Position numbers and translations under genes: made by a program
Notes under the pieces: generated by a model
Told to the model about the DNA's origin: nothing
Seen by the model: only the letters and a program-made list of their open reading frames with translations
Databases searched by the model: none
Part shown: positions 10,131-28,126 of the stretch, piece by piece
Numbering within the stretch: the stretch's first letter is position 1
How the letters are laid out: each line of letters starts with the position of its first letter
From: Patescibacteria group bacterium
GTDB taxonomy: Bacteria > Patescibacteriota > Minisyncoccia > Moranbacterales > DUUL01
Reading direction: 5' to 3'
NCBI GenBank assembly: GCA_015493225.1
Contig: WGDO01000035.1
Span: 1-51,933, forward strand
DNA length: 51,933 nucleotides

Positions 10131-10148
10131 GTAGCGCCAAGGGGAATT
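10131..10148. repeat. Duplicate of the 3' end of tRNA-Glu
   Basis: GTAGCGCCAAGGGGAATT is identical to 10251-10268, the T-arm and acceptor 3' strand of tRNA-Glu plus one flanking base. It lies 120 bp downstream of the tRNA (in its sense direction). A similar layout exists at tRNA-Lys. Confidence 0.85.
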
Positions 10149-10226: not shown

Positions 10227-10251
10227 TTTGTCACTACTTCACTTCGTTACG

Positions 10252-10323
10252 TAGCGCCAAGGGGAATTGAACCCCTGTTACCAGGATGAGAACCTGGCGT
10301 CCTAGCCACTAGACGATGGCGCC
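10252..10323 (-). tRNA. tRNA-Glu (anticodon CTC)
   Basis: 72-nt cloverleaf on the minus strand. Acceptor GGCGCCA pairs with TGGCGCT (one G-T), D-arm around GTCTAGTGGCTAGGAC, anticodon stem CCAGG/CCTGG with loop TTCTCAT giving anticodon CTC, T-arm AGGGG-TTCAATT-CCCCT. The 3' CCA is not encoded (next bases CG). D-arm and variable loop match tRNA-Glu. It is read in the same direction as the prenyltransferase genes downstream. Confidence 0.92.
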
Positions 10324-10493: not shown

Positions 10494-10733
10494 TTAGTTT
10501 TGTATAATGTTTTCTTCATCAAAATTTTCTAGTATTTTGATGTATTCTGCTAAGTCCTTTTTGCCTTCTTCTAACATTTCTCTGTGTATGTCGGTCAAAT
10601 CTTGATTTTTTAATTCTTTCTCTATTTTTTTTATTTCTTCCTTGAGATGACTAATTCTTTCTCGTCTAGATTCACCCTTTTGCTCTGCACCATTAGGGAT
10701 TATATTATCTATTGTATTAATATTTTCAGACAT
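10494..10733 (-). CDS. Small coiled-coil protein, unknown function
   Basis: 79 residues, very polar. Residues about 22-72 form a likely helical coiled coil (RERISHLKEEIKKIEKEL, then EMLEEGKKDLAEYIKILENF). No membrane segment and no recognised domain. It sits between the trailer end of the CRISPR array and a good terminator (10458-10488), on the same strand as the cas genes, so array transcripts could run into it. Nothing in the sequence itself shows a CRISPR role. Confidence 0.6.
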   Translation of the reverse strand: MSENINTIDNIIPNGAEQKGESRRERISHLKEEIKKIEKELKNQDLTDIHREMLEEGKKDLAEYIKILENFDEENIIQN

Positions 10734-10767: not shown

Positions 10768-11932
10768 GCTTACAAAAGTAGAAATTTGATGGGTCTATTT
10801 GGGGACAAAAAACTTACTTTATACGATAACATCTACAAAAGTAGAAATTTGATGGGTCTATTTGGGAAGAGAAAAACAAATTGCCGAAAATGCATCTACA
10901 AAAGTAGAAATTTGATGGGTCTATTTGGGAACTTTACCTATGCCACCAACTGTAAAATCTACAAAAGTAGAAATTTGATGGGTCTATTTGGGACTCTATC
11001 AAAATGGTTGTTGGCAGTATCTACAAAAGTAGAAATTTGATGGGTCTATTTGGGATATTTTCAGAATTGTTTTACATCAAATCTACAAAAGTAGAAATTT
11101 GATGGGTCTATTTGGGGTATAGATAATAGCGATAATGACAGGTATCTACAAAAGTAGAAATTTGATGGGTCTATTTGGGTATCACGAATTGGCAAGAATG
11201 ATTTTAATCTACAAAAGTAGAAATTTGATGGGTCTATTTGGGATTATACCATAGTTGGAGTAACACTAATCTACAAAAGTAGAAATTTGATGGGTCTATT
11301 TGGGAGAATATCCTATTAAGAATAGTAGATTGATCTACAAAAGTAGAAATTTGATGGGTCTATTTGGGAAATTTAACAAACAATTCCACGGTGTAATCTA
11401 CAAAAGTAGAAATTTGATGGGTCTATTTGGGTGCTATTAAGAAAGTAGAAACTCCAGAATCTACAAAAGTAGAAATTTGATGGGTCTATTTGGGACTTAT
11501 TGGGTGTTAGATATGCTATATCTACAAAAGTAGAAATTTGATGGGTCTATTTGGGATATGCTAACAATAAAAATGGTAGGCAATCTACAAAAGTAGAAAT
11601 TTGATGGGTCTATTTGGGGAAATAGTTATAGGAGATGATAGACTATCTACAAAAGTAGAAATTTGATGGGTCTATTTGGGAAAACGCAAAAAAACTACAC
11701 GAAGTAGATCTACAAAAGTAGAAATTTGATGGGTCTATTTGGGCGTTTCTTTGGCCAGCTCTTCCGCCATATCTACAAAAGTAGAAATTTGATGGGTCTA
11801 TTTGGGGGCCGGGGCGGTCCTAGCAGGAGGCAAATCTACAAAAGTAGAAATTTGATGGGTCTATTTGGGTTACCCTAGGTTCTCCCCTCATCACCTATCT
11901 ACAAAAGTAGAAATTTGATGGGTCTATTTGGG
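10768..11932 (-). CRISPR. Type V-A CRISPR array, 19 repeats, 18 spacers
   Basis: Thirty-six-base repeats separated by spacers of 25-28 bases. On the minus strand the repeat starts CCCAAATAGACCCATC and ends AATTTCTACTTTTGTAGAT, the conserved Cas12a crRNA handle with stem TCTAC/GTAGA and loop TTTT. Repeats are identical by eye except the one at 10768-10803, whose handle ends GTAAGC; such decay marks the trailer end, so the leader is at 11933 beside cas2 and the array is read on the minus strand like the cas genes. The three leader-proximal spacers (11744-11770, 11807-11833, 11870-11896) are clearly richer in G+C than the others. Target identity cannot be told without searching. Confidence 0.98.
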
Positions 11933-12155
11933 TCCGGAAATATGATATTTAAGCCAAAAAGATGCAAATTTTGTCTTAAAGACAAAACGACTCTTTGGCT
12001 TAAATACTACAAAACCTCAATGTTGAGACTAAGGTTTTGTATTTTTTGCATTTTTAGCAAATAAACTCAAAAATAGGCCAATGGAAATTTATACTTTTTT
12101 ATCAAAAGTTTCTACGATTTAATTGTCAAAGTGCCCTAATAAACAAGAATAAATT
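11933..12155 (-). promoter_or_regulatory. CRISPR leader with promoter and two hairpin domains
   Basis: On the minus strand, TTGACA (12129-12124) and TTGATA (12105-12100) are spaced 18 bp and could start the pre-crRNA. Before the first repeat the leader has a hairpin with 10-bp arms (12041-12032 / 12017-12008) and a second domain with perfect 13-bp arms (12006-11994 / 11958-11946) enclosing a 9-bp hairpin (11987-11969). The last arm ends 13 bases before the first repeat. No gene seen. Leader position agrees with the decayed repeat at the other end. Confidence 0.7.
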
Positions 12156-12437
12156 CTAAGAAATACAGATGAGGTCAGACTCTTCGTGCTTAGCATAACC
12201 ATATCTCTTAATTTTCTTTTTACAACTCTCACACATTCTAAAAATATACACACTATCCGCTCCAGTAAATTCTTTTTTATACTTTAATTCTACCTCAGTT
12301 AGAATATTTTGCAAGACCCGTTCGCTATCACGAACTTGCCATACGGAATATTGAATACGAGTGCCATATTTTTCCAAAAATCTGGCAAAACGCGCTCGTG
12401 GTTTATTGTCTTCAAAATCATAAGAAACTATTAACAT
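12156..12437 (-). CDS. cas2: CRISPR-associated Cas2
   Basis: 93 residues. The first beta strand MLIVSYDFED carries the conserved Asp7 of the ferredoxin-like fold; RFARFLEKYGTRIQYSVWQV is the typical Cas2 helix and second strand. A CESCKKK segment with two cysteines lies near the C-terminus. With Cas1 it forms the integrase complex that inserts new spacers. It starts 9 bp after the cas1 stop and lies next to the leader end of the array, so it is in position to be co-transcribed with cas4 and cas1. Confidence 0.95.
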   Translation of the reverse strand: MLIVSYDFEDNKPRARFARFLEKYGTRIQYSVWQVRDSERVLQNILTEVELKYKKEFTGADSVYIFRMCESCKKKIKRYGYAKHEESDLICIS

Positions 12438-12446
12438 AAATTTATT

Positions 12447-13415
12447 TTAACGAATTACAAAATCTTTTACTTCACCCTCTTCGTTTAAAATCAAATAATA
12501 ATAATCACGAATGTAATTATAAATATCCATTTTATATCTTAAAATTTCTTTTAAAAAAATATACGCATATTTACCACTATTTTTATATGATAAATAATAT
12601 TGACCTTTTCTTTGTCCAAAATCTTTAGCGTCAAATTTTCCCAAAGTGTGCATTTTAACCAATGCCTTATCAATAATACAGCGAAACGGTTCCATCATAT
12701 CACAAGATAAAGATTTTCTTTGAAAAAATAATTGATGATAAATTCCTTTGTAAGTATCAAAACCATACACACGCAAAATAGAATCAACAAAATGGAAAAG
12801 GAAATTGTAGCCCATATCCAAAAGGATATTATTCTCATCAACTTTTCCTCTCGGCACTCGTCTATACCAATCTATTCTACCAAAGTAAGCACCGAAATAA
12901 TCTTTGGAAATCACGCCCTCCACCCCTCGCAAGGAAGAAATATTTTCAACCTTTTCAATTTTTTGCTTCATCATTTTTTTATATTTTATTCTTGATTTCT
13001 TTCCAATTTGATTTATTTTAGCACCACGCAATAATCCCATAGAATTTCTTAATTTATTGGCAACAATTTTTTTGGAAATTTCTAAGGATTGTTTTTCAGA
13101 TAAACTATACTGTTTTTGACGCAATAAATAATTTCCTTCAGCATAGGCCCCTGTACTAGCATAGGTTTCAAAATTTCGTTTTAAAAAATAAATTGAGGCC
13201 CCTGCTCGTGAAATTTTTTGTAATAGCTTACTAGTGATGGTCATATCTCCAATAATAAAAATGGCTACCAATTTATTTATTGGTATTTTATCTTTTGTTT
13301 TTCCCTCTTCTTTAATTAAAATATTTTCATTACGCAAACTCAATTCACAATCAGGAATTTTGACGGCGTCAATAAAAAATATTTGTCTTTCTTTAAAATC
13401 TGGTGCTTGAATCAT
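12447..13415 (-). CDS. cas1: CRISPR-associated Cas1 integrase
   Basis: 322 residues, normal length. Catalytic metal ligands are visible: Glu166 in RGVEGVIS, His227 in GIYHQLF and the Asp239/Glu242 pair in CDMMEPFR. The N-terminal beta domain (1-85) and helical C-terminal domain are typical. Together with Cas2 it integrates protospacers at the leader-repeat junction; Cas4 encoded upstream would select and trim protospacers by PAM. Spacing to cas4 is 21 bp and to cas2 9 bp, consistent with one adaptation operon. Confidence 0.96.
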   Translation of the reverse strand: MIQAPDFKERQIFFIDAVKIPDCELSLRNENILIKEEGKTKDKIPINKLVAIFIIGDMTITSKLLQKISRAGASIYFLKRNFETYASTGAYAEGNYLLRQKQYSLSEKQSLEISKKIVANKLRNSMGLLRGAKINQIGKKSRIKYKKMMKQKIEKVENISSLRGVEGVISKDYFGAYFGRIDWYRRVPRGKVDENNILLDMGYNFLFHFVDSILRVYGFDTYKGIYHQLFFQRKSLSCDMMEPFRCIIDKALVKMHTLGKFDAKDFGQRKGQYYLSYKNSGKYAYIFLKEILRYKMDIYNYIRDYYYLILNEEGEVKDFVIR

Positions 13416-13436: not shown

Positions 13437-13979
13437 TTATTTACGACATAATTCGTGATAAATACAATTGTTACACTTATTAGCATCTGCACACTTACTA
13501 ACAGTTAAATCAAAATCTCGTATGGCTTTTAGTGTGTTATTAAATTTCTTTAATTGTTCTTTTGATAAATTTATAGGATACACTTTATTATCTGTCAATG
13601 AATATAATTTCATTTTATCCACTTTATATCCTATTTCCTCTAAGCATAATTTTTGAGCATATAATTGAAATAAATAACCGTCATAAATTTTTTTAATCGC
13701 TCGTTTTCTTTCAATTAACTCTTTTTTATCCTTATCATAAATATCAATCTTACCAATAATTCCATATTTTTCAGAAAATACTTCCGTACCTTGTAAAATA
13801 TTTTTCCGTGAAGAAAATTTATTTGTATCAATGGTTTTGTGTGCAATTATTCCCGCAATTTGCGGTTTTGCCTTATACTGCCCTTTGTCAAAATTTTCAT
13901 AAACACTATGAAAATACAATGACCGCGGACAAAATATATAGTCATTTATTTTTGAAATTTGAATATGATCGTAATACAT
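13437..13979 (-). CDS. cas4: CRISPR-associated Cas4 nuclease
   Basis: 180 residues. Four iron-sulphur cysteine candidates: Cys17 (YIFCPRSL) and a C-terminal group Cys163, Cys169, Cys172, Cys178. The PD-(D/E)XK core is present as GKIDIYD (Asp79) and ELIERKR (Glu90, Lys92). Cas4 trims and orients PAM-containing prespacers for Cas1-Cas2. It is the first gene of the adaptation block and is separated from the upstream effector gene by 95 bp that hold a strong hairpin. Confidence 0.95.
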   Translation of the reverse strand: MYYDHIQISKINDYIFCPRSLYFHSVYENFDKGQYKAKPQIAGIIAHKTIDTNKFSSRKNILQGTEVFSEKYGIIGKIDIYDKDKKELIERKRAIKKIYDGYLFQLYAQKLCLEEIGYKVDKMKLYSLTDNKVYPINLSKEQLKKFNNTLKAIRDFDLTVSKCADANKCNNCIYHELCRK

Positions 13980-14074: not shown

Positions 14075-17000
14075 TTATGTTGTATTATTTTGATTATTTC
14101 GAATAAATTCCAGCCCTCGTTTTGCGATGTTGTAAGAGGCTAAAGTATCAGAATTGTTACAAAAATCTAATCCTTCCCTTTTTTTCATATCAGAAGTATC
14201 AAAATTACAGTTTGCATTTATACATTTGTAATTATGAGAACCCCATTTTTCTGATTTATTAGGATTTTTAGTTTCACAATGTGGGCAATTTGAACTAGTT
14301 CCACTTGTTTTTATATAGCCCAAAATCCCAAGTTGAGTTATTTCTTTTTTACTTTGTAAATTCATCACTTGTTTATAAGTTGGAGGAACAAGATTTTTTG
14401 ATTTAAATTTTTGTAAAAGTTTCCATTCAATTCGACTCGCTAAATTTCCTGAAAATTCTGAAAGTCTTTTATTTTTATTATCCTCATTCAAATCCTCAAA
14501 AAACATCATTCCAAAATATTTTTCTTGTAAATAATTTAAAATTCCAACAGCATTGGCACAAAGAGCATCTCGTAAATTATTTATTTTTTCTATAGAAATA
14601 ACATCAACTTCTGCATTTTCTTTTTGTAAATCATTAAAGTATTTTTGTAACTCATTTTTGATAGAATCTAAAGTTAAAATATTCTCAAATCGTTTATCAA
14701 AGAAATATAAATTCTCATTTTCTAATTTCCCTCTATTTTCAATATTCAAAAATAAAGCTCCTTTTCCTGCATCAAAACAAATATTTTCTGATTTAAACTT
14801 TTGTTTTGAAAACCCTTCCCAAATTTTTCGTAAAGCACTTACTCTTTTTAATTCTAAATAAGTAGCAATATCTCCATTTATGACAATTTTATTTTTAATT
14901 AATTTTGCACAAGATAAATCAATACAATATTGATTTTCTTCTTTTTTTATAAAATTATCATCATTAATAACTTCTGAAATATTTTTATAACTTTCCGTTT
15001 TCCCATTTTTTTGTTCCAAATATTTTTCTGGTTTTAATTTCCAAATATCTAATTCTTGAGGAATTGGTTTGTTGTACCTACTAGTAGCACCATCTTGTTT
15101 TGTAAATTCTACTTTTCTTGTTTCAGAAAATTTAAAAATTCCTAAAGTTAAAAGTTCTTTTTGTCCTCGATCTAAACCGTAATAATAAATATCAAATGGA
15201 TTTTTAATATTTTTATTAAACTCTGTATTGTATTCATTAATAAAGGCTTTTATCTCATCTCGTGTTTTAAAAGATAGGTTTGCTTTTTTTTCGCGTGCTT
15301 GCTCAGTAATAGTTGTAGAAAGTAAAAATCGTTCTTTATTTTTTCTATTTTTCCCTAGTTTTCCTAAATCTCTTTTTTCTCCATATTTATCAACTATTTT
15401 TTCTTCTTGTTTTTCTATAAAACTTATCTTCAACTCTGGATTTAAACGGATTGAATATTTGTTTTCTTGATTTTCAGTTGTCCAAAAATCAAGCCAAACT
15501 CTCGTTTGTTTTTCTGGATTTTTTCGATCTAATTGTTTTTTGTTTTCTAAGTTTCCTAAAACTTCTTTATCATTTTTCTCCAAATCATAACTCGTAATTT
15601 TATATAAATTCCCTTGAAATTTATTGACTAAATCATTTTTTGTATCTTCTAAAATAGAGATTGCTTTTTTAAAATAGCAACTTTGTTTCATATCTTTTTC
15701 AAAGTCTTCTAATGAAGAATATTTGTTCTTAATAAAAGATTCAAAATCTACAAAATTATCAATCGCTAACATTTTTTTAGTTGACTTTAGTCCTAAAACT
15801 TTTTGGTAAAATTTAATGATTTCAAGATTGTCTTGTGAAAGCTCATGCTTCATTTTTAATTGCAAATAACCTTTTTTATTATAAAAAACAAAGTTTTCAT
15901 CTTTTTTTTGATTCTCAAAAAGTTCCTCTCTAATTTTGGGAGCAAAAGTGTTTTTGTCATACCCAAAGCATAATTTCTCTAATGCTCGTAAAGTAAGTGA
16001 TTCAAAAGAATAGAGTTTCCAATCTCCATTTTTTTCTTCTGAAATACTGTCTATATATTTTTTTGCTTTCAATAAATTTTCTTTTCCATCTCGTGGAATA
16101 GTACAAATATAATGCTGATTATCCTTCTCTAAAATTAAGGCCCAAGAATTTACTCGTTGTGCATCTATTTCTTCTTTTTCTAGACTTTTAATATTTGCTT
16201 TTACCTTACCTAATTCTACTGAAACATTTTTATAAAAATTACAAAATTTCTTATATTTATTGAAATTAAACATAAAGTGTTTTCCCCTTTCTTGAGCTTT
16301 TTCTTTAATCCTATTAGTTAATTTATTTTTTTCTTCTTTGTAATTTACTGAATCTTTATTCAACTGTAATCTTTGAGTTGCAAGCTCTGTAATTTTATTT
16401 GTTAATTTAACAAATTTATTAAAATTTTCTTCGCTAAAATCATTCATTAAACACAATCCTTTTTCTGTATTTAAAGTAGAAAAATATTTTTTGTCCGCTA
16501 TAAATTCCAAAAAATTTGATTTTTGTTTCGCTTTGTAAAGTTTGAAATTTTTATAAGCCTTCTGAATACTCCAGTTGTTTATTTGATCTAAATCTCCAAA
16601 TTCTTCAATTAACTTTTGATTGGCTTCAATACTTTCATCCAAACTTTCAATAAGATTTATTAAATTATCCTTAAAATTATTCGGAAAAGAAAATTTTATA
16701 TTTTTTCTTTGTTTGAAATCATAATATGAAAAGTTTATAAACTTTTCATCAAGTTTATTTTTTAATTTTTGTATTTCTTTTGGGTAATCTTTTGTTCTTT
16801 TATTTACCGTATAATAATTCAAACTCGCTTTTTCAATTACAATCCCCATTGATTGCATAGGAAGGAGAATTTTTTCTAAATCTAATAAAATTTTATTACA
16901 ATCTCTAATATTTTTCGCTATTTTTTGATAATCTTGACTCGTTTTATCTTGAATATTCCCATTAAATAATTCACGGATAAATTCAACATTGGGACGACTT

Positions 17001-17485
17001 AAAATTTGATGAATATAATATACTAAATCGGAAATTCGTTTTTGTGATTCTTCTGGTCTTTTTATAAACTCGTTTAAATTTTCTATCAATTCTTTATTCT
17101 TTTCAAACCAAAGTTCAAATCGCTCAAACAAAAAAGTTACTTTTTCATCAGAAAGAGAAACTTGATTGCTTTTTTTTCTTCCGTTTTTATAAATCACTAA
17201 TTTCTCTTTAACTTCATGAAACTCTCTTTTTGTATAAACTTTTAACCAAGAGTGTTTTATAGAAATATTAGAGTTTAAATATTTTTCATTATCATCATCT
17301 TCAGAAATTTTAAAAATAAGTTTTTCAAAATCTTGAATAATTTTCCCATATTTTTCTGTAAATTTTTTAGTTAAATCGATATAGCCTAATTGTTCTGTCG
17401 GCTTATACTCTCGTTTTATTTCTTGAGAATCAAGATTAAACCGCAGGGTTTTCGTGACTTCATACAAATTTTGGAAATTTTTCAT
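14075..17485 (-). CDS. cas12a2: Second type V effector, Cas12a2-like
   Basis: 1136 residues. The N-terminus FQNLYEVTKTLRFNL matches the Cas12a-type opening. RuvC residues: Asp772 in YYYGLDRG, Glu997 in FFEDLN and Asp1113 in SDTLASYNIAKRG. Between RuvC-II and RuvC-III, where Cas12a has its Nuc domain, this protein has a short zinc ribbon with Cys1067, Cys1070, Cys1088 and Cys1093. That swap, the co-location with Cas12a and the shared repeat type are the features of Cas12a2, an RNA-activated nuclease that degrades single- and double-stranded nucleic acids and causes abortive infection. Sequence divergence from Cas12a is high outside the motifs. The start is 37 bp after the cas12a stop, so they are probably co-transcribed. 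Assignment rests on motif reading; another unnamed Cas12 branch is possible. Confidence 0.8.
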   Translation of the reverse strand: MKNFQNLYEVTKTLRFNLDSQEIKREYKPTEQLGYIDLTKKFTEKYGKIIQDFEKLIFKISEDDDNEKYLNSNISIKHSWLKVYTKREFHEVKEKLVIYKNGRKKSNQVSLSDEKVTFLFERFELWFEKNKELIENLNEFIKRPEESQKRISDLVYYIHQILSRPNVEFIRELFNGNIQDKTSQDYQKIAKNIRDCNKILLDLEKILLPMQSMGIVIEKASLNYYTVNKRTKDYPKEIQKLKNKLDEKFINFSYYDFKQRKNIKFSFPNNFKDNLINLIESLDESIEANQKLIEEFGDLDQINNWSIQKAYKNFKLYKAKQKSNFLEFIADKKYFSTLNTEKGLCLMNDFSEENFNKFVKLTNKITELATQRLQLNKDSVNYKEEKNKLTNRIKEKAQERGKHFMFNFNKYKKFCNFYKNVSVELGKVKANIKSLEKEEIDAQRVNSWALILEKDNQHYICTIPRDGKENLLKAKKYIDSISEEKNGDWKLYSFESLTLRALEKLCFGYDKNTFAPKIREELFENQKKDENFVFYNKKGYLQLKMKHELSQDNLEIIKFYQKVLGLKSTKKMLAIDNFVDFESFIKNKYSSLEDFEKDMKQSCYFKKAISILEDTKNDLVNKFQGNLYKITSYDLEKNDKEVLGNLENKKQLDRKNPEKQTRVWLDFWTTENQENKYSIRLNPELKISFIEKQEEKIVDKYGEKRDLGKLGKNRKNKERFLLSTTITEQAREKKANLSFKTRDEIKAFINEYNTEFNKNIKNPFDIYYYGLDRGQKELLTLGIFKFSETRKVEFTKQDGATSRYNKPIPQELDIWKLKPEKYLEQKNGKTESYKNISEVINDDNFIKKEENQYCIDLSCAKLIKNKIVINGDIATYLELKRVSALRKIWEGFSKQKFKSENICFDAGKGALFLNIENRGKLENENLYFFDKRFENILTLDSIKNELQKYFNDLQKENAEVDVISIEKINNLRDALCANAVGILNYLQEKYFGMMFFEDLNEDNKNKRLSEFSGNLASRIEWKLLQKFKSKNLVPPTYKQVMNLQSKKEITQLGILGYIKTSGTSSNCPHCETKNPNKSEKWGSHNYKCINANCNFDTSDMKKREGLDFCNNSDTLASYNIAKRGLEFIRNNQNNTT

Positions 17486-17522
17486 AATTTTATTTTTTTA
17501 GATAGTTTATAAAACTATTAAA

Positions 17523-20500
17523 TTACTTTTTCACCACAAAATTATCCCACTCCTCATTACTGATAAATAGGTTTGGAAATTTATTTTTTGTTGTTCGTTT
17601 TTCTTCTGGTGTTTTTTCCCATTCATCAATTCTTTGTAAAGTGATGATACCTTTTCTAGCAATATTATAGGCTCCATTGTCATCTCCATTTTTTGGTAAA
17701 TTTTTTCCAAATTTTCCCGAGTCCCTGCTGTCAAAAAATGGTTTTACTGGTGATAAAATAAAATCTTCATCAAATATTTTTTGAGAAATTTTTTGGTTTC
17801 TTGCATCAAATTTTTCTGACTCTTTTAATTTCTGAATTTCTTTGTGCAAATTTCCATCAGTATTTCTAATTTGACAAATAAGTCTAAAGTAAGCAATAAT
17901 TCCTTTTAGCAAATTAGCAGAATTGGAATTAAAAATTTGTTCTAAAATATTTCCCTGTAAATCAATATTTTCTTCTTTAAAAAGTTCTAATAGTTTTTCT
18001 GTGATAGTTTTTTCGTCTTTTGTTCTGTCGCAGTCCTTAGAACTAGCAGGATATTTTTTATAATCCCATTGATTATTTGTTTTTTCACTTCTAAATCCTC
18101 GCCATCGCTCTACACTGCTACAAACTCGCCATTCTTTTTTATTATAAGTGTAAACAAACTCAAAACGATTTTCTTTTTGATTCCAAACAATTTCATCAAA
18201 TTTTTCTTTTAACAATTTTGAGGTTTTTTTAATATTTTCATACTTTAAATACAAATGCGGTCGCCAACCAGTTATTGGGTCAATCTTTGAAGTATAACTA
18301 GCCGTAGTATAAAAAATAATACCCGTTTGTTTCCCCATATCTTTAAAAGCTTCCACAGGTGCCGTCAATTGATGGGCTTTTAAAACTCCGCCGATCTCAT
18401 CAGAATTTTTAGTCTTATCTACACAAAAACTCAATTTATCAAGCAATGCTTTTTCTAGTTGCTGATAGGCCGATTTTTCTATTCCTCCACGAATTTGTTT
18501 AAACCTCATATTTAAATCTTCAAACACTATAATTGCGTTATGTTCAATTGCCAAAGTTGCCAACTTATGAACAACTTGAGAAATATACCCCTTCTTTAAA
18601 TCTTTAATCGCTTCTACTGTTTGCCAATCTTTCCTTTGTTGTTCTCTGTCCTTAGCTCGCCTCTCTAATTCATGATGATAATCTTTTCCTCCTATTATAT
18701 TCAATGAATCGCTTTCAATAATATTCCCTTTTTGGCCAATCAAAGAATAATACGCTAAATGCTTTTCTCCTCGGTCTATTCCCAAAATATTTACATCGGG
18801 ATTATTCGCTAAAAAATTATTTATTTTATCGTTGAATTGGTAAGTGTTTGAACTACCCGCTGTTCTATTAAGTGTTGTGGGGAGATGAAAAAAAGTTTTA
18901 TTTTGAGTATATCGTTTTTTTTCAACAATACTATGAGAAGTTTCTTTATTATTTTTTGCTCTATTTACTTTTTTTGCTTCAATAGCTTTAGGTCGATAAA
19001 AAAGTTCTGCTTCACCGTTCATTTTGAATGGAAAATTTTGAGAAAAATTTTCTGAAGAAAATAAATTTTCAAAATAGAGAGTATGTAGATTCTTTTTTCC
19101 GGTAGCTTTCTTATTCCAGTCTTTATTTTTTATCTGAAATAAATATAATTCTCCGTCCTCATTTTTTCTTTGGATATATTTTTCAGAAATATTTTCCCAA
19201 GAAATTTTATAGCCTCCATTTTCTACCTCTCTATAAAATTCGCTTATATCTCTATAGGCATTAGTATCAGAAAATTTAAAATTAAATTCTTTCCAATCTT
19301 TATGCTTTTTAAGTGAAGCTTTGAAAAAATTAATTAGTATATGACAATCATCTAAATTAAAATCTCGCTTCTCATAGCCCTTCTGAGGTTGCCCACCTTT
19401 GGTATGACTAGAATGATTTCTAATTTCCAAAACTTTTTTTGATGGATTAAAAAATTCAATATTTGATTTACTAAAAAATACTTTTGGCAACATCTTATTA
19501 GCTCCTGGCAAAAGTTTGTATTCCATTTTTTCATACCCTTCTCCAGAAAACTCTTCTCGATTTTTTTCATCAAAAAGTTTATTATGACCTTTTTTCATAA
19601 TCCCCAAAAAATACTTTTCGTCCTTGCGTAATATAATAGAAGTATTGTCTGATTCCTTGTTTTTATCCCATCCTTTTGCCAAAGTAGGATTGAGAAAATT
19701 CAACTTCCACTTTTGCACTTCTTCCCATGGTTTTTTGGTTAAATAATTTCGCAAACGATTATACGGTTGCACAATTTTTTCGTAAGAGTCAACAAAAAAC
19801 TGATTATAATAAATATCATAAAATTCATCATTTAATTCAAAAAGTTCTGGATTCCATTGTGAACCCTTCTTTTTATCTACTTTTTCTAAAGAAAAATATT
19901 TTGAAAATTGATAAATCCATAAAAGATTATCTGCAAAAAGTTTTACCGTTGCTGTAAGTTCTTTTGTTTTTTCTAATTTTTCTTTTTTTAATAAATTTTC
20001 TAAGTTTTCAGCAAAAGCATGATAACCTTTATTTTCTTTTTTATTAGTCCCTTCTTTTAATATTAAAAATTCTTGCCAAAAAATTTGTAAAAATTGATGC
20101 CAAATATTTTCTTTTGTTGTATTTTTTTGTTCATATTTTTCTTTCCAAAACACATCTTCACCAGAAAAATCTTTAGCAATATTTTCTAAAGATTGTTTAA
20201 GATGTGAAAGAAGAATAAAATTTGGAAATTTATATCCTTTATCTTTTTGTTTTGTCATTTTCTCGCCATTTTTTCGTAACACTTCAGCAAGTTCCTCCTC
20301 CCATTTATATGTATCTGTAGAATATTTTCGAGAAATAGTTTCAAAACCTTTTTTGGTCCAATAAATTTTTTCTAAATCAAAATTTTCATTATTTTTTACA
20401 AAATCAGAAAATAATTCTTTTAAAACTTCTACCTTCTTGTTCCCTTCCTTTAAAAGATTTTCCAACTCCATTTTAAGCCCTGCTTCATTTTCAATTTCTT

Positions 20501-21470
20501 CAATAAATTTTTCCTTGGGACTTAAAATTTGTTTATCTAAAGTTTTAAGATGTTTAATTTTTACTTTGTTTTTTTGTTTGAATAAATTAGCTTCTTTTTT
20601 AATTTCCCCAACAATTTGATTATACCCGTCAATTCCTTTTCCAAATTTTTTATCACGTTCATTAGCTTTTTGACCTTGCAAAACAAACTGTCCAAAATTT
20701 TCTATATTCTGAATGAAATCTACTTTTTTATTATCTAAGGTTTTTAAAAAAATTGCATCATATTTTTCTAATAACCACTTATTTTCAAAACATCTTCGCA
20801 AATTATCCGTAATTCTTGTCGCAATCGCCGTTGAAGTTCCATCATCTTTATAAAAATTTTTTCTCGTTTCAAAAAATTTTTTAAAATAGCCCGTAAAACC
20901 TTTCCACCCTTCAAAAATAGAAACTTCTTTTTCTTCCAAAATTTCCCCTGTTTGTTTATTGATTTTTCTTAAAAATTCTGTTGTTCCTTTTGTATAACTA
21001 CCATCTTTATTTTTTCCATACAATGATAATAATACATTTTCAAAAACGCCTTCTTCATCTAAAAATTTAATATTTTTATTTTTCAATCCAGTAAACTTTT
21101 CTGTTGCCCAAAATTTTGCCATTTTATTAAAAGATTGCACCACTTCTTTTCTTATTTTTTTTTCTACTTTCTCTAATTCTTTTTTCAAAACTTTATTATT
21201 TCTATCTTCCGAAAAATTTTTTAGAGCTGTTTCATATTGGGATAAATTAGAAAATTGGAAATTTTTCAGACTCTCTTGCACAAATTTTCTATGAAGCTTG
21301 TCAAAATAAGGTTTCGTTTTAATATATTTGTCACGGATACTTTTATCAATTTGAAAAACATTATCTTCTTCTAAAAGTCTTTGCGTCCCCCCTACTGGTT
21401 TCAACTCAAATCGCAGGGTTTTACTTAGGGAGTATTGATTTATAAATTCATCAAATGTTTTTTTCGCCAT
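17523..21470 (-). CDS. cas12a: Cas12a (Cpf1) RNA-guided DNA nuclease
   Basis: 1315 residues, normal for Cas12a. The start INQYSLSKTLRFELKPVG is diagnostic. WED segment GWDKNKESDN (about 600-609), PAM-interacting LLPGANKMLPKVFFSKS (about 653-669), crRNA-processing histidine His862 in FFHLPTTLN, RuvC-I Asp899 (LGIDRGEKH), RuvC-II Glu984 (IVFEDLN), Nuc-domain Arg1202 (CQIRNTDG) and RuvC-III Asp1263 (GDDNGAYNIARKG) are all present, so it should be an active nuclease that processes its own crRNA and cuts double-stranded DNA. First gene of the cas run, with a promoter-like region upstream. A T-rich PAM is expected from the family. Confidence 0.97.
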   Translation of the reverse strand: MAKKTFDEFINQYSLSKTLRFELKPVGGTQRLLEEDNVFQIDKSIRDKYIKTKPYFDKLHRKFVQESLKNFQFSNLSQYETALKNFSEDRNNKVLKKELEKVEKKIRKEVVQSFNKMAKFWATEKFTGLKNKNIKFLDEEGVFENVLLSLYGKNKDGSYTKGTTEFLRKINKQTGEILEEKEVSIFEGWKGFTGYFKKFFETRKNFYKDDGTSTAIATRITDNLRRCFENKWLLEKYDAIFLKTLDNKKVDFIQNIENFGQFVLQGQKANERDKKFGKGIDGYNQIVGEIKKEANLFKQKNKVKIKHLKTLDKQILSPKEKFIEEIENEAGLKMELENLLKEGNKKVEVLKELFSDFVKNNENFDLEKIYWTKKGFETISRKYSTDTYKWEEELAEVLRKNGEKMTKQKDKGYKFPNFILLSHLKQSLENIAKDFSGEDVFWKEKYEQKNTTKENIWHQFLQIFWQEFLILKEGTNKKENKGYHAFAENLENLLKKEKLEKTKELTATVKLFADNLLWIYQFSKYFSLEKVDKKKGSQWNPELFELNDEFYDIYYNQFFVDSYEKIVQPYNRLRNYLTKKPWEEVQKWKLNFLNPTLAKGWDKNKESDNTSIILRKDEKYFLGIMKKGHNKLFDEKNREEFSGEGYEKMEYKLLPGANKMLPKVFFSKSNIEFFNPSKKVLEIRNHSSHTKGGQPQKGYEKRDFNLDDCHILINFFKASLKKHKDWKEFNFKFSDTNAYRDISEFYREVENGGYKISWENISEKYIQRKNEDGELYLFQIKNKDWNKKATGKKNLHTLYFENLFSSENFSQNFPFKMNGEAELFYRPKAIEAKKVNRAKNNKETSHSIVEKKRYTQNKTFFHLPTTLNRTAGSSNTYQFNDKINNFLANNPDVNILGIDRGEKHLAYYSLIGQKGNIIESDSLNIIGGKDYHHELERRAKDREQQRKDWQTVEAIKDLKKGYISQVVHKLATLAIEHNAIIVFEDLNMRFKQIRGGIEKSAYQQLEKALLDKLSFCVDKTKNSDEIGGVLKAHQLTAPVEAFKDMGKQTGIIFYTTASYTSKIDPITGWRPHLYLKYENIKKTSKLLKEKFDEIVWNQKENRFEFVYTYNKKEWRVCSSVERWRGFRSEKTNNQWDYKKYPASSKDCDRTKDEKTITEKLLELFKEENIDLQGNILEQIFNSNSANLLKGIIAYFRLICQIRNTDGNLHKEIQKLKESEKFDARNQKISQKIFDEDFILSPVKPFFDSRDSGKFGKNLPKNGDDNGAYNIARKGIITLQRIDEWEKTPEEKRTTKNKFPNLFISNEEWDNFVVKK

Positions 21471-27441: not shown

Positions 27442-27891
27442 TTAATTTACATTTGCCATTTCAAAATGTTTTTCTAAGACGCTGACCCTTGAATCAAGCT
27501 CAGCTAATTCTTTTTTGGTGGCAGATTCCTTCTTTAATCTCTCTATTTCTTTTCTGACAGCAACTAATTCATCTTCAATATTAGATAAAAACTCAAATAC
27601 TTGATCAAATTTCTCATTCATTTCTGTTCGTAGTTCTTCCTGTCCTTCCCTTAGTACTTTTTGTTCCTCGGCAATGACAGCAACATTCTTTTTTAAATCT
27701 TTTTGTTCCTCGGCAATGACAGCAACATTCTTTTTTAAATCTTTTTGTTCCTCGGCAATGACAGCAACATTCTTTTTTAAATCTTTTTGTTCCTCGGCAA
27801 TGACAGCAATACCGTCGCTCATCTGCTCCAGCATCATCATAACCTCATTGCCCCTAAAAACGCTTTCTTCATTTTTATTATTATCAGCCAT
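27442..27891 (-). CDS. Coiled-coil protein with 14-residue tandem repeats
   Basis: 149 residues. Residues about 28-80 repeat the 14-mer VIAEEQKDLKKNVA three times and part of a fourth, followed by a heptad-type coiled coil (LREGQEELRTEMNEKF) and KKELAELDSRVSVLEKHF at the end. No membrane segment. The repeats are nearly identical at DNA level, so the length can change by slippage in 42-bp steps without breaking the frame. Similar small proteins pair with toxins, restriction or cell-surface systems, but no partner is seen here. Confidence 0.65.
   Translation of the reverse strand: MADNNKNEESVFRGNEVMMMLEQMSDGIAVIAEEQKDLKKNVAVIAEEQKDLKKNVAVIAEEQKDLKKNVAVIAEEQKVLREGQEELRTEMNEKFDQVFEFLSNIEDELVAVRKEIERLKKESATKKELAELDSRVSVLEKHFEMANVN
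27661..27809. repeat. 42-bp tandem repeat inside the coiled-coil gene
   Basis: Three full units begin at 27661, 27703 and 27745 and a partial one at 27787; each starts TTGTTCCTCGGCAATGACAG. Identical by eye, so recent or kept uniform. Confidence 0.9.
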
Positions 27892-28045
27892 CGTACTGCC
27901 TGGTTAATTATTATTTTCAACTATTTCAGTATAACATATTTTCCAAAAACTACAACTCTAAAAATTTTTAGTGGATTTTTTCTATAAATGTGCTAACATT
28001 AGAATTGAACTCATGTAAAGTCAATTGCATATTAAGTTTACCTAC

Positions 28046-28126
28046 AACTTACTACTTACAACTTACTACTTACTACTTACTACTTACTACTTACTACTTA
28101 CTACTTACTACTTACTACTTACTATC
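28046..28126. repeat. Heptanucleotide repeat upstream of the phosphoesterase gene
   Basis: About ten copies of TTACTAC with two early variants (TTACAAC), ending 20 bp before the ATG of the metallophosphoesterase. The repeat lies in the untranslated leader or promoter spacer, so copy number could affect expression. Confidence 0.9.

What the first reader, a model, noticed from the sequence alone, without database searches (positions are those of the whole stretch)
14075..21470. Cas12a and a Cas12a2-like nuclease in tandem, sharing one array
Seen: two large same-strand RuvC proteins 37 bp apart, then cas4-cas1-cas2 and a single array with a Cas12a-type handle. The first has every Cas12a landmark. 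The second keeps RuvC D772/E997/D1113 but replaces Nuc with a four-Cys zinc ribbon, as known for Cas12a2. Inference: both effectors load the same crRNAs, one cutting DNA and one sensing target RNA and shutting the cell down. Tandem arrangements of this kind are rare, and in a CPR-like genome with a small proteome an abortive-infection arm is unexpected.
Basis: partly seen in the sequence, partly recalled or inferred. Interest (0 to 1): 0.88.

Follow-up and report, generated by a model that had tools for sequence, protein, structure and literature searches.

The report
Cas12a paired with a Cas12a3-like nuclease
A small-genome bacterium carries two related CRISPR nucleases side by side on one guide array: an ordinary DNA-cutter (Cas12a) and a second enzyme nearest to the RNA-triggered Cas12a3 group, not to Cas12a2; the pairing is already documented, but this enzyme lacks the special parts of both known groups, so what it cuts is an open and testable question.

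Summary
cas12a (17523-21470) and a 1136-aa RuvC protein (14075-17485) lie 37 bp apart on the minus strand, followed by cas4-cas1-cas2 and one array of 19 repeats with a Cas12a-type handle. The second protein keeps the RuvC triad D772/E997/D1113 and a four-Cys zinc ribbon.

The name "Cas12a2-like" is only partly right. By phmmer, profile score, tree and Foldseek the protein sits on the Cas12a3 side (273 bits to Cas12a3, no phmmer hit to SuCas12a2). It lacks the 26-residue insert that carries three of the four Cas12a2 aromatic-clamp residues, and about 70% of the Cas12a3 tRNA-loading domain. It belongs to a short-insert group that includes Smithella, Bdellovibrionales and Gracilibacteria proteins.

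Tandem pairing is not rare here: 11 of 16 relatives with readable upstream DNA have cas12a directly upstream. Two-effector type V-A loci in CPR genomes were published in 2019 and 2021.

Best reading: a shared crRNA pool arms Cas12a against DNA and this enzyme against transcripts. Once activated it cuts RNA in trans and arrests growth. RNA triggering and the substrate are inferred from relatives, not shown. Novelty: a new member of a known kind.

The parts
17523..21470 (-). cas12a, 1315 aa; type V-A DNA-targeting effector with REC1, PI, RuvC and Nuc
   Evidence: TIGR04330 854 bits (cut-off 300), Pfam RuvC_1, NUC, PI, REC1; PDB Cas12a-type chains E to 2e-206
14075..17485 (-). second effector, 1136 aa, short-insert relative of Cas12a3
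   Evidence: PDB phmmer 5.6e-80 to Cas12a3; Foldseek 3.5e-49 to Cas12a3; PADLOC PDLC01230 678 bits
14078..15523 (-). C-terminal region of the second effector (aa 655-1136): RuvC I (D772), insertion domain, RuvC II (E997), zinc ribbon (C1067, C1070, C1088, C1093), RuvC III (D1113)
   Evidence: alignments A2 and A3; catalytic residues also align with SuCas12a2 D848/E1063/D1213
13437..13979 (-). cas4
   Evidence: TIGR04328 208.7 bits, cut-off 70
12447..13415 (-). cas1
   Evidence: TIGR04329 306.9 bits, cut-off 300
12156..12437 (-). cas2
   Evidence: TIGR01573 48.1 bits, cut-off 24.5
11933..12155 (-). putative leader between cas2 and the array (inference from position only)
   Evidence: sequence read; no promoter test was run
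10768..11932 (-). CRISPR array: 19 repeats of 36 nt, 18 spacers of 25-28 nt, handle AATTTCTACTTTTGTAGAT, last repeat degenerate

Best explanation
The locus is a two-effector type V-A CRISPR-Cas system. Cas4-Cas1-Cas2 add spacers to one array. Both effectors process the same pre-crRNA, because the handle is of the shared Cas12a type. Cas12a finds and cuts matching double-stranded DNA. The 1136-aa protein is a member of the Cas12a3-side, RNA-activated branch of the Cas12a relatives. Binding a matching transcript that carries a purine-rich 3' flank opens its RuvC site, which then cuts RNA in trans (tRNAs being the leading candidate), so the cell stops growing when Cas12a has failed to clear the invader. 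Shown here: the gene order, intact catalytic residues, zinc ribbon, placement beside Cas12a3, and absence of the clamp insert and of most of the tRNA-loading domain. Inferred from characterized relatives: crRNA sharing, RNA triggering, trans cleavage of RNA, growth arrest. Rough odds: RNA-triggered 0.85; RNA rather than double-stranded DNA as collateral substrate 0.75; tRNA 3' tails in particular 0.4-0.45.
For: phmmer and profile searches place it with Cas12a3, as does Foldseek. In the tree the tRLD-bearing Cas12a3 rows plus L018 are cut off from the short-insert rows by a 99/100 branch, and the window protein is sister to a Gracilibacteria protein at 100/100. RuvC triad and zinc ribbon intact. 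The aligned Lys/Arg of the SuCas12a2 crRNA-processing site (K784, R785) are K and R in the window protein. Ba1Cas12a3 S469, which contacts the flanking adenine (PMC12851939), is the invariant S496. Three of the four Cas12a2 clamp residues are absent with their insert, and PMC9849127 reports the clamps as needed for dsDNA cleavage. Published work: Cas12a2 and Cas12a can exchange guides (PMC9811890); Cas12a3 and Cas12a4 are RNA-triggered RNases (PMC12851939).
Against: No member of the short-insert group is known by sequence, in the material I could read, to have been assayed for RNA triggering. A 2020 review lists SmCms1 (Smithella) as a genome editor with a TTN PAM (PMC7642200), which would suit DNA targeting if SmCms1 is the L005-type protein; that link is from memory and untested. 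Most of the tRNA-loading domain is missing, and deleting it from Ba1Cas12a3 substantially reduces cleavage (PMC12851939). I found no protospacers for three spacers tested, so target strand and flank could not be checked.
Confidence: 0.68

Rival explanations
1. It works as a true Cas12a2: RNA-triggered, then shreds double-stranded DNA, single-stranded DNA and RNA alike.
For: Zinc ribbon in place of Nuc, RuvC I-II spacing of 225 aa close to SuCas12a2's 215 (SuCas12a2 D848/E1063 from PMC9849127), tandem with Cas12a as published for Cas12a2. Foldseek does find Cas12a2, as second best.
Against: 83 bits to SuCas12a2 against more than 1500 to Cas12a3; the insert with Y1069, Y1080 and F1092 is absent, and those residues are needed for dsDNA cleavage. 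The fourth clamp residue (Y465) lies in a part of SuCas12a2 I did not recover.
Confidence: 0.12
2. It works as a true Cas12a3: the activated enzyme clips the 3' CCA tails of tRNAs, using a reduced loading element. This is the narrower form of the best explanation.
For: Closest solved relatives are Cas12a3. Sm3Cas12a3, from a Smithella strain, cuts tRNA tails slightly upstream and with other substrate demands (PMC12851939); the Smithella protein L005 belongs to the short-insert group, so short-insert tail cutters may already exist.
Against: Only 31 residues fill the columns of Ba1Cas12a3's tRLD (residues 855-960); R902, Y922 and N924 fall in gaps. Whether Sm3Cas12a3 is an L005-type protein could not be tested.
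Confidence: 0.4
3. It is a DNA-triggered Cas12a variant that broadens target range or resists anti-Cas12a proteins.
For: A 2020 review lists the related Cms1 nucleases as genome editors with TTN PAMs. PADLOC files the family as Cas12a.
Against: SuCms1, from Sulfuricurvum sp. PC08-66, is on the same list, and the enzyme from that strain is SuCas12a2, which is RNA-triggered. The window protein has no Nuc domain hit and Cas12a is the worst of the three structural matches.
Confidence: 0.1
4. It no longer cuts and acts as an RNA-guided binder or regulator.
For: PMC6509639 reported substitutions in RuvC II and III of the array-proximal Cas12a of two-effector Roizmanbacteria loci.
Against: All three RuvC acidic residues are present here and in all 16 relatives aligned.
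Confidence: 0.05

Closest known systems
Cas12a3 (Ba1Cas12a3, PDB 9HLX/9HM4; PMC12851939)
   Same: Best sequence and structure match; 29% identity over 1018 aligned residues; same RuvC triad, zinc ribbon, WED and PI core, no aromatic-clamp insert; Ba1Cas12a3's own locus also has cas12a upstream (L015).
   Different: Only 31 residues where Cas12a3 has a tRNA-loading domain of 101-118; RuvC II is EDL instead of KEGF; falls outside the tRLD clade.
Short-insert relatives: Smithella sp. SCADC (L005), Bacteroidetes BP6 (L004), Leptospiraceae (L006), Bdellovibrionales (L008, L009), Ca. Gracilibacteria (L003)
   Same: Same domain layout and short insertion (32-41 residues in the tRLD columns); the five non-Gracilibacteria loci also have cas12a upstream. 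Closest is L003, 43% identity.
   Different: Hosts, array repeats and Cas12a partners differ; L003 has no cas12a upstream and is read with TGA as glycine.
Two-effector type V loci in CPR genomes: Vampirococcus Vamp_48_93 (PMC8080830) and Roizmanbacteria Cas12a/Cas12a' (PMC6509639)
   Same: A second large type V protein in the same locus as Cpf1; Vamp_48_93 is 1158 aa, lies between cpf1 and cas1, and has relatives in Gracilibacteria and Smithella.
   Different: I could not fetch those sequences, so identity with this group is inferred from the papers' own descriptions.
Cas12a2 (SuCas12a2, PDB 8D49; PMC9811890, PMC9849127)
   Same: Zinc ribbon in place of Nuc, insertion domain, tandem with Cas12a on a shared array.
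   Different: Very distant sequence (83 bits with the family profile); aromatic-clamp insert missing.
Cas12a4 (ApCas12a4; PMC12851939)
   Same: Reported as RNA-triggered, RNA-only cleavage and without the tRNA-tail preference.
   Different: No sequence was available, so no comparison could be made; the paper says only that Cas12a3 lacks the clamp regions entirely and that clamp conservation is limited in both new clades.

Membership tests
Cas12a (for the first gene, 17523-21470) | Cas12a equivalog model and RuvC plus Nuc domains | tested here: met
   TIGR04330 854 bits over a cut-off of 300; PF18516 and PF18510 hits
Cas12a2 | Closest to SuCas12a2 in sequence and structure | tested here: not met
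   No phmmer hit at E<=10; 83 bits versus 1515-1608 for Cas12a3; Foldseek second to Cas12a3
Cas12a2 | Aromatic clamps Y1069, Y1080, F1092 after RuvC II | tested here: not met
   26 alignment columns empty in the window protein; the fourth residue, Y465, was not testable
Cas12a2 | Zinc ribbon instead of Nuc | tested here: met
   C1067, C1070, C1088, C1093; no NUC hit. Shared with Cas12a3, so not diagnostic
Cas12a3 | Best sequence and structure match is Cas12a3 | tested here: met
Cas12a3 | tRNA-loading domain (Ba1 residues 855-960) | tested here: not met
   31 residues against 101-118 in nine tRLD-bearing relatives; R902, Y922 and N924 in gaps
Cas12a3 | Falls inside the published Cas12a3 clade | tested here: inconclusive
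   Outside the clade of the two solved Cas12a3 and their kin at 99/100, but the published clade's own sequence list was not readable
Cas12a3 | RNA-triggered cleavage of tRNA tails | not testable with these tools
   needs biochemistry
Cas12a4 | Membership in the ApCas12a4 clade | not testable with these tools
   no Cas12a4 sequence available in the collections reached
Type V-A system with shared array | cas4-cas1-cas2 of type V, Cas12a-type repeat handle | tested here: met
   TIGR04328, TIGR04329, TIGR01573 above cut-off; handle AATTTCTACTTTTGTAGAT

The most novel reading that the evidence does not exclude
The short-insert group, with the window and Gracilibacteria proteins as a deep sublineage, is a functionally separate branch of RNA-triggered Cas12a relatives: with neither aromatic clamps nor a full tRNA-loading domain, it cuts a collateral substrate different from those of Cas12a2 and Cas12a3.
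Probability: 0.35. Interest if true: 0.7.

Novelty: new member of a known kind. Interest (0 to 1): 0.42.

Why it matters
Cas12a2 and Cas12a3 differ in the parts that select what the activated RuvC site cuts. This protein, and the group it belongs to, appears to be the shared core without either part. Assaying it would show whether the loading domain is needed for tRNA cutting, and what the core does on its own. It also suggests that the second effector can be paired with unrelated Cas12a lineages: the window Cas12a groups with Cas12a genes of its own class that have no detected second effector, not with the tandem Cas12a genes of other phyla. For CPR biology it adds a case of a small genome that keeps a probable growth-arrest arm.

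Tried and rejected
Filing the protein as Cas12a2: rejected on sequence, structure and missing clamps. Filing it as a standard Cas12a3: rejected for want of most of the tRNA-loading domain. The cassette moving as one unit: not supported, because tandem Cas12a genes do not form one group in the Cas12a tree. Viral relatives: three scans of IMG/VR (two with this family, one with the SuCas12a2 fragment) and tblastn of phage and plasmid records found none. Protospacers: exact searches of the cores of spacers 1, 3 and 16 in IMG/VR found none. A CPR hit in G203 was an ordinary Cas12a. A hit in G048 was an 85-aa frame, too short to be an effector. Cas12a4 comparison: no sequence found. Rooting on SuCas12a2 is weak because its branch is very long (5.5 changes per column), so whether the short-insert group is a clade or a grade is open.
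Full report
What is there. The minus strand of the window carries, in order, cas12a (17523-21470, 1315 aa), a second effector (14075-17485, 1136 aa), cas4, cas1, cas2 and a CRISPR array (10768-11932). The two large ORFs are 37 bp apart. The array has 19 repeats of 36 nt and 18 spacers of 25-28 nt; the repeat ends in AATTTCTACTTTTGTAGAT on the transcribed strand, the Cas12a-type handle. Cas12a, Cas4, Cas1 and Cas2 all pass NCBI's curated cut-offs. The locus sits between ordinary chromosomal genes: ribosome recycling factor and an M50 peptidase upstream, tRNA-Glu and a polyprenyl synthetase downstream. Its G+C is 24-30% against mostly 30-39% elsewhere in the window, compatible with horizontal origin. 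The assembly is 1.31 Mb in 87 contigs. No tool names the organism; CPR status is an inference from genome size and kin.

Which family. Among solved structures, phmmer finds only the two Cas12a3 sequences as real relatives (5.6e-80 for 21WE, 1.2e-72 for 9HLX) and no Cas12a2 at E up to 10. A scan of GTDB genomes gave 17 relatives. Two of them match the solved Cas12a3 sequences printed: L015 is Ba1Cas12a3 and L017 is the 21WE protein. A profile of 17 members scores the solved Cas12a3 chains at 1515-1608 bits and SuCas12a2 at 83; Cas12a3 sequences are in that profile, which favours them. A C-terminal profile of the short-insert members alone, without any Cas12a3, still prefers Cas12a3: 289-320 bits against 74.5. 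An AlphaFold2 model of moderate quality (mean pLDDT 71, pTM 0.62) matches Cas12a3 first (E 3.5e-49, TM 0.53-0.55), Cas12a2 second (2.9e-27, TM 0.44) and Cas12a third (3.8e-15, TM 0.30). The low TM values probably reflect domain movement and weak regions; the ranking is the useful part.

What it keeps and lacks. RuvC D772, E997 and D1113 and four zinc-ribbon cysteines are present, and the three RuvC residues are invariant in the alignment. They align with SuCas12a2 D848, E1063 and D1213, and the SuCas12a2 crRNA-processing pair K784/R785 aligns with K and R (the alignment there is gappy). Ba1Cas12a3 S469, reported to contact the flanking adenine, is the invariant S496. The 26-residue insert after RuvC II with Y1069, Y1080 and F1092 of SuCas12a2 is absent here and in all 16 relatives; those residues are reported as needed for duplex DNA cleavage (PMC9849127). 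The Ba1Cas12a3 tRNA-loading domain (residues 855-960) is represented by 31 residues, against 101-118 in nine relatives that have it; R902, Y922 and N924 fall in gaps. RuvC I to II spacing is 225 aa here, 208-256 in the short-insert group and 312-328 in tRLD-bearing Cas12a3.

Where it branches. In a tree of the C-terminal two thirds, the tRLD-bearing Cas12a3 proteins plus a Campylobacteraceae protein (L018, 59 residues in the tRLD columns) form one side of a branch at 99/100. The window protein pairs with a Ca. Gracilibacteria protein at 100/100. SuCas12a2 has a very long branch, so the root, and hence whether the short-insert proteins are a clade or a grade, is unsettled. PMC12851939 says the tRLD has no discernible homology in SuCas12a2, so the tRLD is most simply a gain in Cas12a3 (inference).

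Tandem arrangement. Cas12a lies directly upstream in L004, L005, L006 (fragment at the contig edge), L007, L008, L009, L010, L013, L015, L018 and L019; none is found in L003, L011, L014, L016 and L017, and L012 is cut off by the contig end. That is 11 of 16. In the window's own class, 7 of 188 genomes hold Cas12a above the cut-off. One of those, G387, also has a C-terminal piece of a short-insert effector at a contig end followed by cas4 and cas1, with its Cas12a at the end of another contig, probably the same arrangement broken by assembly. A profile search of 380 genomes of the phylum found no other full-length effector. The Cas12a of the window groups with Cas12a genes of its class that lack a detected second effector (96/99), apart from most tandem Cas12a genes of other phyla. 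Some of those solo genes lie at contig ends, so solo status is provisional. The simplest reading is that the second effector is joined to different Cas12a lineages on different occasions.

Literature. Tandem cas12a2-cas12a on one array, and guide exchange between them, were reported in PMC9811890. PMC12851939 defines Cas12a3 and Cas12a4 as RNA-triggered RNases and shows tRNA-tail cleavage by Cas12a3. PMC8080830 describes an 1158-aa protein between Cpf1 and Cas1 in the CPR bacterium Vampirococcus, with relatives in Gracilibacteria, Roizmanbacteria and Smithella. PMC6509639 describes two Cas12a proteins in one CPR locus. The arrangement and its presence in CPR are therefore known.

How it most likely works. 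One array gives crRNAs to both effectors. Cas12a needs a T-rich flank on DNA; a transcript with the sequence of the target strand then carries an A-rich 3' flank, which is the kind of flank the RNA-triggered relatives prefer (PMC12851939; the link is inference). Cas12a cuts DNA; if the invader is still transcribed, the second effector is activated and cuts RNA. Growth arrest follows. tRNA is the leading substrate because the nearest characterized relatives cut tRNA tails, but the reduced loading element makes that uncertain. No protospacer was found for three spacers, so nothing here tests which strand is targeted.

Verdict. It is a new member of a known kind whose missing parts make the group a good test of what selects the collateral substrate.

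Noticed in passing
L003:9977-13582: The closest relative, in a Ca. Gracilibacteria contig, is open only when TGA is read as glycine (40 TGA codons in that frame, table 25).
   Followed up: partly
L006:5165-6010, L010:13599-14657, L011:13288-15222, L016:13621-14658, L017:13314-15329: Several relatives carry one extra gene between the second effector and cas4 (three different kinds by eye). The window has none. PMC12669027 mentions DUF3800 nucleases in some V-A2 loci; whether any of these is one was not tested.
   Followed up: partly
window 10131-10148 and 10251-10268: An identical 18-bp stretch (GTAGCGCCAAGGGGAATT) occurs at the 3' end of tRNA-Glu and again 120 bp further on, next to the array; it resembles a duplicated attachment site.
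   Followed up: no
window about 10495-10733, minus strand: A small ORF of about 80 aa rich in Lys and Glu lies between the array and tRNA-Glu; no function assigned.
   Followed up: no
window 27657-27809 in gene 27442-27891: A perfect 42-bp tandem repeat (3.6 copies) inside a coding frame gives repeated VIAEEQKDLKKN-type units.
   Followed up: no
window 28039-28124: A 7-bp repeat (TACTTAC, 12 copies) in the 5' part of an ORF that begins with GTG.
   Followed up: no
L018:3928-7368: A Campylobacteraceae protein has an intermediate insertion (59 residues in the tRLD columns) and is sister to the tRLD-bearing Cas12a3 group, a possible step in the growth of the tRNA-loading domain.
   Followed up: partly
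L027 (G387 contig C41) and L032 (G387 contig C39): A genome of the same class holds the C-terminal part of a divergent short-insert effector before cas4-cas1, and a Cas12a at another contig end.
   Followed up: partly
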